The notes beneath the pieces were generated by a model. It had not been told where the DNA came from. It worked only from the letters and a program-made list of their open reading frames with translations, and made no database searches. A program made the translations under genes and the position numbers. This document shows, piece by piece, positions 1 through 42,961 of a stretch of 64,000 nt of DNA. Origin of the DNA: Hypomesus transpacificus (taxonomy: Eukaryota > Chordata > Actinopteri > Osmeriformes > Osmeridae); assembly GCF_021917145.1 (NCBI RefSeq), contig NC_061082.1, positions 16,223,682 through 16,287,681 of the forward strand, given 5' to 3'. Numbering within the stretch: position 1 is the stretch's first letter; every line of letters begins with the position of its first letter.

Positions 1-1129
1 CCATATCTGAGGTGTTAACCGTAAAGATGGGAGATGTCCTTCACTTTACCTGCAATGACCCAGAAAAAGCCATGGCCATAGTCAACAAAGGTAGAGACTT
101 TTTTTACTCAATCACTATTTTGGCCCCCGAAGGGAATTCAGGTGTTCGGGCAACTAGTAACACTGTATAACTAGAGTTGTAAGTGTTACAGTACTGCTGA
201 ATGACAGTGTAGGTATAGTTAATAACTATATTATTAATGTTAGCGATCAAAGTCAATCACTGTTTAAAGAAAAGTATAGGTAATAGCTATAATAATAATA
301 ATAGGATACTTAAAAGTGTGAGTGTGTTTTGTTGTGCTAGGCCTTGATGCTGAGGCCATGGCCAGGCTGGCGGATCTCCTTCGCAGCTCCTCTTCTGAAG
401 CCACTGACCAGGAAGGGACAATAGGAAGTCCCAACCCAGAGTTGAGTTTAGGCTTCACCAACCAGGAAGTTTGCCAGTCGGAGAAGGCTGACATCATCAT
501 TTCCTGGTTGCCCCCAAGGCCCTCTGAGACCCCCTCCCTCCAGCCTGGGGAGGTTCTGATCCAGGAGAAGGTTTGGACAACCTCCGGGGCCCAGTGCCCT
601 GCACCACCAGACCCTGCGGGACTTCCTGCACGGGCTGATGGTACACCTAGCCCTCCAGGAGTCCCCGTCGACCACCAGCGCCCCCACCCCCTCGAAGCTA
701 GAGGCTACTCTCCTTCAGAAAGTGGGATGGATTCTTTGGACCCAAGACGGGATCAGCCTCACCCTGGATCACCAGCCCCAGAGCCCGTTCTTCAGTGGCA
801 CAGACGCCCTTGAGGCCATGTTGGAGGCGGGCTACGCTAAGCTGTCACTCAGCTCTAACAGTAGCAGGGCCCTGCTCCGCTCTGCTCGCCACGGAGAAGC
901 GGGAGCCATTTGCTGCCTGGCCCAGACCATTGCCACGGTGATCTGCCGCCACGCCGAGGACTGGCGCGCTCCTGCTGTGTCGGATGTTACCGTCCGTTTT
1001 GAAACAGGTTGTGAGGGGAAGGAGAATGCTCAGGACTCTGCTGGCTTGGAAAAGGCCAATGGAAGCTCCAGCTTAAGAACAAATGTGAGGATAGATGACG
1101 GATCTGAGCTCTCTGACGATAGCTCCTCA

Positions 1130-1399
1130 TCCGCCTCCACCTCCCGGTTCTGCCACTCCTCCTCTTCCTCCACCTCTGACTTATCCTCCTCCACCTCCCG
1201 GTTCTGCCACTCCTCCTCTTCCTCCACCTCTGACTTATCCTCCTCCACCTCCCGGTTCTGCCACTCCTCCTCTTCCTCCACCTCTGACTTATCCTCCTCC
1301 ACCTCCCGGTTCTGCCACTCCTCCTCTTCCTCCACCTCTGACTTATCCTCCTTCACCTCCCGGTTTTGTCACTCCTCCTCTTCCTCCACCTCGGATTTA
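1130..1399 (+). repeat. 54-bp coding minisatellite, 5 units (copy 1)
   Basis: Five tandem 54-bp units each encode the 18-residue motif SSSTSRFCHSSSSSTSDL with small changes (A at the second residue in unit 1, F at the third residue in unit 5). The unit length is a multiple of three, so unit number can change without shifting the frame. The opposite strand is also open, as Glu-rich repeats, but this is a shadow of the repeat. Confidence 0.95.
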
Positions 1400-1663
1400 T
1401 CCTCCTCTTCGCACTCCCAAACCTCCATCAGCTCCTCCATCTCCAGGAGCTCCATGGCTTTGGACCCCTGCCCAGATGGGGACAATCTGGACCATCTAAG
1501 AAAGACCAAACCCTCCAGACTCCAAAGATGGTTCACCTTGGTAAGCTGAAAACAACTCCACACACACTGGCACTGGGTAGACATGACCTGAACGCAGTCT
1601 AGGACAAGAAAGGGTTCAAAGTATGCATTTGAAGAATACATTATGTATGAGTAGAAAACAGTA

Positions 1664-39400: not shown

Positions 39401-42296
39401 ATGCCAAGTGGAGGAAGTTGTACATCAGAGGACTGAAGAGCTCCCAATCCAAGCACTGCTTTGCCTCCAGGCACTGGACGTTGGGCTGGTAGTGACAGCG
39501 GCATGACGAGGGAAATCGTCCCATCTGTGTCTCCGGGAGCAGATGATATAGGTGAATAATCAGCTCCTCTGAGAAGCAGTCGATCCTCGCCTGCAACACC
39601 CTCGTACCCGTGCTTTGGGACACCAGCAGGCGGTCCAGGTCATACTCGGCCTGGTCGAAGGACGAGACGGAGGAGCCATCGTCACTTTCGCAGTCTTCGT
39701 CATCAGTGACTGATCTGGAGGCCGAGTGTGCCATCTGCACAACAGTGTCTAGCATTTTTTGGGCAGTGAGGTTAAGGTCGTGGCAACTAGCAACACTGTT
39801 TGCCTCACTCCTGGGACTAGGGCTCCTGGTGGCTGACTTAGAGAAGAAAGGAGAGGTCACCTCCTTCTGCAGGTTCTCTTCCTCCTGCTCCTCCTTGCTG
39901 GCAGAGCTGCACTCCTTCTGCTGGGTGTAGAGAGGGAGGCTTTCCTGACACGAGGGTGTGCAAGCCTCCTTCTCCTCCCTTTCCTGGACCATGTTTCCCA
40001 GCAGCCCTCCCTGGGTACTGCTGCTGCTCCTCCTGCTTCTTAGAACACCCTGGAGGATGTCCGGTTGGTCTGAGCCCTGAGAAGAGGCCGACATGGAGAC
40101 ACAGTTGCTGTGGGAGGAAGCGGCCGACATCGGGTCTTGGCTGATGTGATGGACCTGGTAAAGGGCCATGGCGGGCAGCACTCCCTCATTGACCACATGG
40201 AGAACCCACTCCATCATCTCCTCTAAATGCTTCTCCAGCTCAGCTATGTTCTTGTTCTGAGAGAGAGACAGCAAGATAGAGAGATAGAGAAAAGGGCATG
40301 GAGAGAGAGGAGAGAAAGGCAGCGTAAAAAAAAGGGGGAGGAAGTTAAATCGCAGTACAGATACACATAGTTATTGTCAAGCTGAGTAAAAAATATTAGG
40401 TTAGAAAATAAACATCTTATCTACCTTTCTCAACAGGACCGTTTTGATGAGTCTCCACTGACTGTAACAAGAACAACAACGCATTTGTCACACTCTCTCT
40501 ACAGTACAATGACAACTAACGACACATTGTAACATTGTGTTCATCAGGGCAGTAGCCTAAAGAGGACGTTAACAGGGACACTTACGAATGGGACATAATA
40601 GCTTCAAACAGAGGCTGGGGCGTGGTCTCCCGGGTCACTGGGTCATCCAGGGTGGGAGGAGAAGACGGTGGAGACTGAGCCTGAGGTCGGCGTGTAGTCA
40701 GAGGTGGAGACGGAGGTGATGTGGGTGGAGATAAAGGTGGAGGTAGAGAGAAGTTGGTTCTCTCCCCATCATCTGGTGTGGACCTGCACTTTAGGATCTT
40801 GGGTTCCTCTGGGCTGAATGGCACAGAGGCTGACGGTCTTATTGGTGGAAGAACACCTACATGTAGAGGAGAGTCACGGTGTGATTGGTGGATCCCTCTC
40901 TTGATAGAAAGTGATCATTCAATCATGAATGTTGTACTCTTGATACATTAATAAACCAATACTCACAGTAGCTGGTCTGGGACATGGGAGGCATCTTCAC
41001 ACATGCACCACCAATCCCCTGCAGGCAAGACAAACGCTTAGCAAGGCATCGTGATAGAGAAGTTATCAGAGTTGTTGGAGACGTGGAGGTAGATTGAGTT
41101 GAGGGGAGTAGTTGGTGTCTGTAGTACCCAGTGAGGGGATGAGGGCCTTTTACTCACCATCCTGCCTGGTCCTGCCAGTTTCCGGGCCAGGTGTGAACCT
41201 TGTTCAGCAGCTGGCATACAGCCTCCAGTGCCCACATCAACCCTCCAGGACTCTGCCTGGGGTCCCTTGTTAGCCCCTCCAGCTTTGTCCGATCCTGCAG
41301 CCTTCCTGCCAGCCTTGGTCTTGCGGCCGGCCTTAGTGCATTGAGGAGGCAACAACATTATTAATGGCAAAGGCGGATGTTTCATCACCAAAACGAGAGA
41401 CTAGTATTGTATGCTTCCTCAACTTCCTCTCCCAACCTACTGGTCCATAGAGTAAAACTGCTCACGATCAGAAGAAGCTCTGATAAGTCCCACAGGCACA
41501 GATTAAACTCTTAAATTGGTCATTCTGTGCCACATGGGTGAGGCATGTTTTTCCAAAGCACTAACACTTTTATCAGAATGATATCATATTGTATTGATGT
41601 TAATGTTACACTATCTGGTCAAAATCAGATGCCATTCCCTGGCTGTAACCACTGGAATACTGTTCAACTACACTACACTTCTGATTCTTGATTATCTGCT
41701 GCACCTACTTTATGCAAATACTATTAGCGTGTCATTTTGGATCAAATGAGTGTGCCTAATGAATATATTATCAAATGTGTTGAGTTTCTACAGGCAGCTG
41801 TTCTTACCTGGAGGGGGTCCTGCTGTTCTGGGGACTTCCTGTCCCGGGGCTGCAGGGGAGGAAACTTCAGTCCAGGCTCTGACCAACAGGGTGGCAGGGG
41901 CAACTGGGATGCAGTTGTGTCACGGAGACACGCAGGCTTGACACACACACACCATGTAAACACACATGCACACAAACAAACAAGGTGCGGTAGGTGGAAT
42001 TGAGGTTACAATTAGCAGTGAAACACGACAAGAGAGAGAGAGGTGCCTTGAACAGAACTTTCGTTATCTTTTGATGAAGAAATATAACTTGGAATTATGA
42101 AATATGACTAGGTTAGGTCAGTGTCAAACACAACTTTTAGACTCGCAATAAATAAAGAAATGATTCTCAATAATCTAGAGAACCAAATATTTTCGTTTTT
42201 GAATCGTTTAAACAATTGTAGCTACTTCAAGATGGCCAGCCTTACCTTCTGTTTACTCCTCAATTCTAATATTTTATGTTTTGAGATGTCATCCAT
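36494..42296 (-). CDS. Ser/Pro-rich uncharacterised protein, copy 4 (intact)
   Basis: A ten-exon minus-strand copy: 42246-42296, 41808-41849, 41158-41331, 40967-41018, 40586-40856, 40425-40461, 39035-40256, 37748-38784, 36894-36990 and 36494-36612. Exon 8 is 1037 nt, exactly one 54-bp unit shorter than in copies 2 and 3, so the product is 1033 aa. The frame is open throughout and splice sites are conserved. It shares the last-exon changes of copy 3 (SVEKQKKK) but ends exon 8 with PSRLQRWFTL like copy 1, a mosaic pattern. Intron 4 carries a short extra segment (about 40880-40905). Function unknown. Confidence 0.8.
36699..36804. repeat. (TG)n microsatellite, intron 9 of copy 4
   Basis: This is a pure TG run of about 105 bp, the longest of the four equivalent tracts. 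Confidence 0.95.
37508..37622 (+). mobile_element. tRNA-derived SINE in intron 8 (copy 4)
   Basis: This is the same SINE as at 29948-30062, offset by 7560. Confidence 0.8.
37889..37996 (-). repeat. 54-bp coding minisatellite, 2 units (copy 4)
   Basis: Only the first unit (SAST...) and the last unit (SSFT...) remain, so all middle units are absent in this copy. Confidence 0.95.
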
Positions 42297-42961
42297 GTTT
42301 ACACATTTGGTAAGGATGACAAATTAAGAAATCACTTCTATAAAATGAAAAGTTTCTTGACTCTTTGCATACGAAGCATTTTCCTCCATCACTGACATAT
42401 TTTACTTCTTAGGATGAGTTATTATCATTTGCTAAAGTGTGTCACAATTCTCTGTATGCGTCATAATGTCCAGACTGTGCGGTGTCTCTCCTAAAGCAAT
42501 GCGACAGAAAAGTGCGATTGCAAGTTTAAATAAACTAACGTTTTTCAACTAAATTGGTAGGGAAATTGTAAACAGTGTGAGTTGTGCGTCCTGTACCCAG
42601 GGCTATCCAACTACTACTGTAAGTCGCTCTGGATAAGAGCGTCTGCTAAATGCTAAATGACAAGCGTATATGCTACTTTCACGCCAACCACACAGTGAGG
42701 AATCAGCTTTGCTGTCAAAATAAAATGACTGAAGCTTTATTAATACACGCACGTTTAACATGCACAGGTTGCATGCCAATCTCATCAGCGCATTTAATTG
42801 GTTATCACATTATAATTGAGGGCGCATATGAAGGGAAAAACACTGTGTTCCGAAATGTCTTTGTGCACATGTAGTCCTTGGTTAAAAGATTGGCGTAGAG
42901 CCCTGACTCCCCTCCCATCGTAACTTTACGGCGCAACCTCCGCTCCCATTTCTCCTCTAGT
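42297..42961. other. 5' flank of gene copy 4
   Basis: This upstream region matches 15702-16397 inverted. It contains the V-SINE tail remnant (about 42615-42660) and the L2-like LINE scrap at the duplication edge. Homology to copy 2 ends at about 42961. Confidence 0.55.

What the first reader, a model, noticed from the sequence alone, without database searches (positions are those of the whole stretch)
1..42961. Four-copy +,+,-,- amplification of an uncharacterised Ser-rich gene
Copies at 1-2731, 16398-22184, 28950-34770 and 36494-42296 share exon structure, introns and an intronic SINE, and copies 3 and 4 differ very little over 7 kb. Three of four have fully open ten-exon frames (1051, 1051 and 1033 aa). 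I cannot place the protein in a known family. Recent expansion, inverted orientation and preserved frames suggest a selected or dosage-sensitive gene, as seen for lineage-specific fish families.
Basis: partly seen in the sequence, partly recalled or inferred. Interest (0 to 1): 0.85.

Follow-up and report, generated by a model that had tools for sequence, protein, structure and literature searches.

The report
Young branch of large gene family
The four near-identical genes in this stretch of a fish-like genome are real and form a young, gene-converted branch of a much larger family (about 37 places found) encoding a serine-rich protein for which no known domain was found.

Summary
Four copies of a ten-exon gene lie in +,+,-,- order. 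Copies 2, 3 and 4 are open (1051, 1051, 1033 aa); copy 1 continues upstream of the window and has one frame shift. They are part of a larger family: I tally 37 loci on 10 contigs of the same 437-Mb genome, in three groups about 44-65% identical in protein. The window copies belong to the youngest, shortened group: exon 7 is 1222 bp, against 2215-2374 bp in the three open members read from the other groups. Their gene bodies differ by 0.4-0.8%, while flanks differ by about 2-7% or are unrelated, the mark of gene conversion. Distinct flanks argue against false haplotypic duplication. Between groups dN/dS is 0.47-0.57, intervals below 1, so the family is coding; among the four window copies selection cannot be told from neutrality. 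No significant Pfam, NCBIfam or PDB match; the recalled FSIP2 lead failed. Best guess: a largely disordered, membrane-tethered scaffold. Expression is untested.

The parts
1..2731 (+). Copy 1, 3' part: end of exon 7, exon 8 (341-1540, one frame shift), exon 9 (2291-2387), exon 10 (2613-2731). The gene starts about 3.2 kb upstream of the window.
16398..22184 (+). Copy 2: exons 16398-16448, 16836-16877, 17354-17527, 17667-17718, 17809-18079, 18204-18240, 18409-19630, 19880-20970, 21728-21824, 22066-22184; 1051 aa, open
28950..34770 (-). Copy 3: exons 34770-34720, 34323-34282, 33805-33632, 33492-33441, 33350-33080, 32955-32919, 32750-31529, 31278-30188, 29430-29334, 29068-28950; 1051 aa, open
36494..42296 (-). 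Copy 4: exons 42296-42246, 41849-41808, 41331-41158, 41018-40967, 40856-40586, 40461-40425, 40256-39035, 38784-37748, 36990-36894, 36612-36494; 1033 aa, open
30321..30491 (-). 54-bp coding tandem array in exon 8 (Ser-rich). Copy number varies: about 5.2 in copy 1, 3.1 in copy 2, 3.2 in copy 3, 2.1 in copy 4
29507..29930 (+). Repeat in intron 8 of all four copies, found at 13 other genomic places (SINE-like by eye, not proven)
4804..5658 (-). C2H2 zinc-finger gene downstream of copy 1, co-duplicated with it
24274..25212 (-). C2H2 zinc-finger gene downstream of copy 2, partner of 4804-5658 (flank 95.7% identical, gaps counted)
35313..36249 (-). Upstream flank of copy 3, matching the C11 copy; the matches of copies 2 and 4 to copy 3 end at 35312: mosaic evidence

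Best explanation
SHOWN: this is a genuine multigene family of host genes, which I tally at 37 loci on 10 contigs. The four window copies belong to its youngest, shortened branch. They arose by segmental duplication in direct and inverted orientation, and their gene bodies were then made alike by gene conversion. The shortening is most simply a loss of about 1 kb from exon 7, which the open members read from both other groups keep. SHOWN: between groups the protein is under purifying selection, with dN/dS 0.47-0.57. INFERRED, weaker: the product works as a mostly disordered Ser/Pro-rich scaffold. Short conserved helices would bind partners, and a conserved basic, Cys-containing C-terminus (KKK..K.FFR.........FC..C) would hold it at a membrane. 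The inverted, gene-converted layout resembles germline-expressed ampliconic families, so gonad expression is the first guess. About 0.9 for the family and gene conversion, about 0.3 for the scaffold role, about 0.25 for gonad expression.
For: Ten exons with GT-AG introns in all four copies. A C9 member has the same splice phases from exon 4 on and at least 1350 aa with no stop. Family-wide tally. Body against flank divergence: copies 2-4, 37/5373 against 25/565 (p=9e-11); copies 1-2, 12/1941 against 85/4266 (p=2e-5). The upstream flank of copy 3 matches the C11 copy while its body is closest to copies 1, 2 and 4. dN/dS with bootstrap intervals. The predicted helices of exon 7 are more conserved (103/167) than the rest of exon 7 (112/233) between copy 3 and the C9 member. 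C-terminal pattern present in the seven members aligned.
Against: No RNA evidence is held here. The exon 7 fold has mean pLDDT 32.8, so its helices are only suggestive, and exon 8 was never folded (queue full). Many copies are broken: of 10 loci outside the window clade whose exon 7 frame was read directly, 3 are open throughout and 7 are not. There is no domain match to support any function.
Confidence: 0.7

Rival explanations
1. False haplotypic duplication: copies 3 and 4 (or 1 and 2) are alleles placed side by side by the assembler.
For: Copies 3 and 4 differ by only 0.43% over exons 1-9 with introns, an allelic level.
Against: Upstream flanks of copies 3 and 4 are unrelated beyond about -540; 54-bp repeat numbers differ; copies 1 and 2 carry co-duplicated zinc-finger flanks at 95.7%; further copies lie on nine other contigs; the window contig is 21.5 Mb long.
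Confidence: 0.06
2. The window copies are young pseudogenes or by-products of segmental duplication with no present role; only the longer groups are functional.
For: dN/dS among copies 1-4, and between copy 3 and the C11 copy, cannot be told from 1; copy 1 has a frame shift and the C11 copy a stop; exon 7 is shortened.
Against: Three of four remain open and their splice sites are kept; insertions and deletions are fewer in exons than in introns in five of six pairs, equal in one; dN/dS between copy 3 and the other groups is 0.47-0.56, though this mixes older branches.
Confidence: 0.35
3. Sperm fibrous-sheath/A-kinase-anchor-type protein (FSIP2- or AKAP-like).
For: Amphipathic-helix pattern like RII-binding helices: 8 relaxed matches in copy 3 against a mean of 1.6 in shuffles, and 3 strict against 0.9. 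The motif was recalled, and such hits follow from any amphipathic helix.
Against: No Pfam FSIP2 hit at E up to 10. The Pfam FSIP2 model found two other weak loci in this genome and none of these genes, and those two loci show no clear relation to the family.
Confidence: 0.1
4. Transposon-borne or captured gene spread by a mobile element.
For: Dispersal over 10 contigs; repeats in and around the copies.
Against: Introns and flanks travel with the copies, so they were not retrocopied; no transposase or integrase domain in the proteins scanned. Terminal repeats and target-site duplications at copy ends were not searched for.
Confidence: 0.05

Closest known systems
Ampliconic gene families in inverted repeats kept alike by gene conversion (type case: Y-chromosome palindromes; PMC3403216, title and abstract start seen in the listing)
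   Same: Near-identical copies in direct and inverted order; body more alike than flanks; broken copies among open ones
   Different: Sex linkage and testis expression unknown; copies also on nine other contigs; the protein shows no match to a known family as far as tested
FSIP2 / AKAP-type sperm scaffold proteins (recalled)
   Same: Large exons, long disordered-looking stretches, amphipathic helices
   Different: No profile match
Lineage-expanded fish families such as fintrim/TRIM, zinc-finger or NLR genes (recalled; a TRIM and two C2H2 genes lie in the window)
   Same: Clusters on several contigs, recent copies, open and broken members together
   Different: None of their domains in this protein

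Membership tests
Protein-coding multigene family (not chance ORFs) | Shared splice sites and purifying selection between diverged members | tested here: met
   splice sites and phases; between-group dN/dS 0.47-0.57, upper limits at most 0.67
Gene-converted (concerted) ampliconic array | Gene bodies more alike than the flanks they were duplicated with; mosaic ancestry | tested here: met
Gene-converted (concerted) ampliconic array | Germline expression, sex linkage | not testable with these tools
   no RNA or sex-linked reads held
FSIP2 (Pfam PF15783) | Match to the family profile | tested here: not met
   no FSIP2 hit up to E=10; none of these loci
A-kinase anchoring protein | RII-binding amphipathic helix | tested here: inconclusive
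   recalled pattern enriched over shuffles but unspecific
TRIM / C2H2 / NLR / GTPase fish families | Their Pfam domains | tested here: not met
   no Pfam family up to E=10 in the three proteins scanned (copy 3, C9 and C20 long forms)
Assembly haplotig duplication | Flanks of the two copies also allelic | tested here: not met
   flanks of copies 3 and 4 unrelated beyond about -540; different repeat numbers; read depth not available

The most novel reading that the evidence does not exclude
A so far undescribed protein family with its own architecture (disordered scaffold, short conserved helices, palmitoylation-like basic C-terminus). It has amplified to about 40 genes in one fish-like lineage under concerted evolution because of an arms race in the germline or innate immunity, and the window copies are a newly shortened, converting subtype.
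Probability: 0.15. Interest if true: 0.7.

Novelty: new member of a known kind. Interest (0 to 1): 0.4.

Why it matters
It gives a well-resolved case of concerted evolution on a 21.5-Mb contig of a fish-like genome: four copies, inverted and direct, with converted bodies, distinct flanks and older paralogues for comparison. It also exposes a sizeable coding family that the domain libraries searched here do not cover. If expressed, its copy number and short and long forms are a ready test of whether such expansions are selected or merely tolerated.

Tried and rejected
FSIP2/AKAP idea: Pfam scans and a genome search with PF15783 did not support it. An extra intron in exon 7 of the other groups: the first models needed one, but reading the frame directly shows a single long exon in the open members, so those model introns are artefacts. 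The dN/dS values and the tree rest on those early models for the long groups; the long-form rerun gives 0.55-0.57 between groups, and even its C20/C23 models still leave out short in-frame pieces as introns. Internal protein repeats by hhalign: no convincing pair in the part of the output shown. Structure of exon 7: mean pLDDT 32.8, so no fold search was made. Neighbourhood of the C143 member: no identifiable gene recognised by eye in 20 kb of flank; no domain scan was run on it. Paper searches: listings and abstract starts only; no paper was opened, and nothing on this family was noticed in them; I make no claim that it is absent from print.
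Full report
WHAT IS THERE. The window lies at G000:C23:16223682-16287681 of a 437-Mb genome in 376 contigs. Self-alignment and exon mapping confirm four copies of one gene: two on + (copy 1 at the left edge, copy 2 at 16398-22184) and two on - (28950-34770 and 36494-42296). The ten-exon model gives 1051, 1051 and 1033 aa for copies 2, 3 and 4. Copy 1, completed with upstream DNA, has all ten exons, no stop and one frame shift in exon 8. The copy 3 protein is 15.6% serine and has no hydrophobic stretch typical of a membrane span: the best 19-residue Kyte-Doolittle mean is 1.35.

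THE FAMILY IS MUCH LARGER. DNA search and protein searches with exon 8, exon 7 and most of a C9 member give, by my own grouping of neighbouring rows, 37 loci on 10 contigs: C1 two, C9 seven, C11 two, C18 two, C20 four, C21 eight, C23 eight (four of them in or reaching into the window), C143 one, C158 one, C366 two. Several are fragments (C1:11.12, C9:15.40, C21:3.57, C23:17.22). The tool says that counts of large families are lower bounds. A tree of 18 of the 37 loci, rooted by choice on C143, gives a young group (window copies, C11:8.41, C1:11.12) and a second group (C20, C18, C23:18.3-18.5, C11:8.32, C158), each with 100% support; C143 stands for the third. The C9, C21, C366 and C1:12.03 loci were not in the tree. 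They are placed with C143 by identity: the long rows of C9, C143, C1:12.03 and C21 are 88-98% identical to the C9 query over exon 7, the query's own row aside; the two C366 loci gave 69% (with stops) and 88% (part only). Protein identity between the three groups is about 44-65%.

THE WINDOW COPIES ARE A SHORT FORM. A C9 member (L046+L045) is a clean ten-exon gene of at least 1350 aa, its start not fixed, with the same splice phases from exon 4 on. Its exon 7 is 2215 bp and open. In two C20 members exon 7 is open through about 2370 bp. The window copies have 1222 bp. The missing stretch aligns as protein between the C9 and C20 groups, so a loss in the young group is the simplest account; a gain is not excluded because the root is unknown. 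Seven other loci read in the same way have an interrupted exon 7 (L020, L012, L014, L013, L009, L021 and C143). In one search, 10 of the 19 loci of the C9/C21 group (the query included) show one unbroken match over the whole of exon 7.

GENE CONVERSION. From exon 1 to exon 9, copies 3 and 4 differ at 23/5383 sites and copies 2 and 4 at 37/5373; the shared 5' flank of copies 2 and 4 differs at 25/565 (p=9e-11). Copies 1 and 2 differ at 12/1941 in the body part inside the window but at 85/4266 downstream (p=2e-5). One of the four downstream pieces, 6/1092, is as alike as the body. Copies 1-3 and 1-4 differ by about 0.7-0.8% over exons and introns 1-8, and the windows just upstream of the gene by up to about 7%. 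Upstream of about -540 the matches of copies 2 and 4 to copy 3 end, while copy 3 goes on matching the C11 copy (7/297 and similar) although its body is closest to copies 1, 2 and 4. This mosaic is hard to explain without conversion, and it makes false haplotypic duplication unlikely. Faster change in the flanks was not separately excluded.

SELECTION. Among copies 1-4, NG86 dN/dS is 0.51-0.90; all six intervals reach above 1, and the six pairs hold 7 to 21 coding differences each. YN00 gave 0.90-1.75 in the four pairs it could compute. Exons and introns 1-8 differ to a similar degree: copies 1 and 2 differ at 19/3156 and 18/2377. Insertions and deletions are fewer in exons (0-2 events) than in introns (1-7) in five of these six pairs and equal in one, which is mild evidence for constraint. 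Between groups dN/dS is 0.47-0.57 with upper limits of at most 0.67. Within the second group it is 0.45-0.64 in four pairs, two of them with upper limits above 1. Within the C9/C143/C21 group it is 0.37-0.57 in eight of ten pairs, one of which (C143-L043) has an upper limit of 1.10; the two pairs L042-L041 and L042-L043 gave 0.76 and 0.82 and look partly misaligned. So the family is coding and constrained, while the young copies tell little.

WHAT THE PROTEIN IS. No Pfam family at E up to 10 for copy 3 or for the C9 and C20 long forms; in the three-member alignment one member gave a chance-level hit, DUF4611 at E=9.8. No NCBIfam hit up to E=1, a weak test because that library is built for bacteria and archaea. 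No significant PDB match (best E 0.1, 0.51, 0.7 and none). AlphaFold2 on exon 7 gave mean pLDDT 32.8 with isolated helices; those helices are more conserved than the rest (103/167 against 112/233). The C-terminus, basic with a KKK..K.FFR.........FC..C pattern, is kept in the seven members aligned. I read this as a disordered scaffold held at a membrane; that is inference. The FSIP2/AKAP idea came from recall and was not supported.

SURROUNDINGS. Copies 1 and 2 each carry a downstream C2H2 zinc-finger gene on the other strand, duplicated with them. Between them lies a TRIM gene on - with RING/B-box, coiled coil and PRY-SPRY parts. UnaL2-type LINE 3' ends occur five times in the window.

VERDICT. 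The copies are real, recently converted, and one branch of a large uncharacterised family. The inference of selection from open frames fails for these copies but holds for the family.

Noticed in passing
window 8482-12070, - strand: TRIM gene with RING/B-box (11315-12070), TRIM coiled coil (9791-10270) and PRY-SPRY (8482-9096) between copies 1 and 2.
   Followed up: partly
window 4804-5658 and 24274-25212, - strand: Duplicated C2H2 zinc-finger genes with different numbers of fingers (84-bp repeat, about 8.5 and 9.5 units).
   Followed up: partly
window 16034, 28522, 35089, 42606, 49971: Five UnaL2 LINE 3' elements (Rfam RF00436), three of them within about 400 bp upstream of the start codons of copies 2, 3 and 4.
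   Followed up: no
L047 (C16:2007726) and L048 (C9:9270657): Two 526-aa open frames, closely alike by eye, weakly similar to the Pfam FSIP2 model (E 0.05 and 0.17, below its cut-off): another possible duplicated gene.
   Followed up: partly
L039 (C18:3399293): The search reported an open frame of 2069 aa around the exon 8 match, far longer than in other copies; not examined.
   Followed up: no
window 28196-28522 and 35926-36252: 327-bp repeat (96.6%) that also matches upstream DNA of the C11 copy; the one at 28196 may be the remnant of a lost further copy.
   Followed up: no
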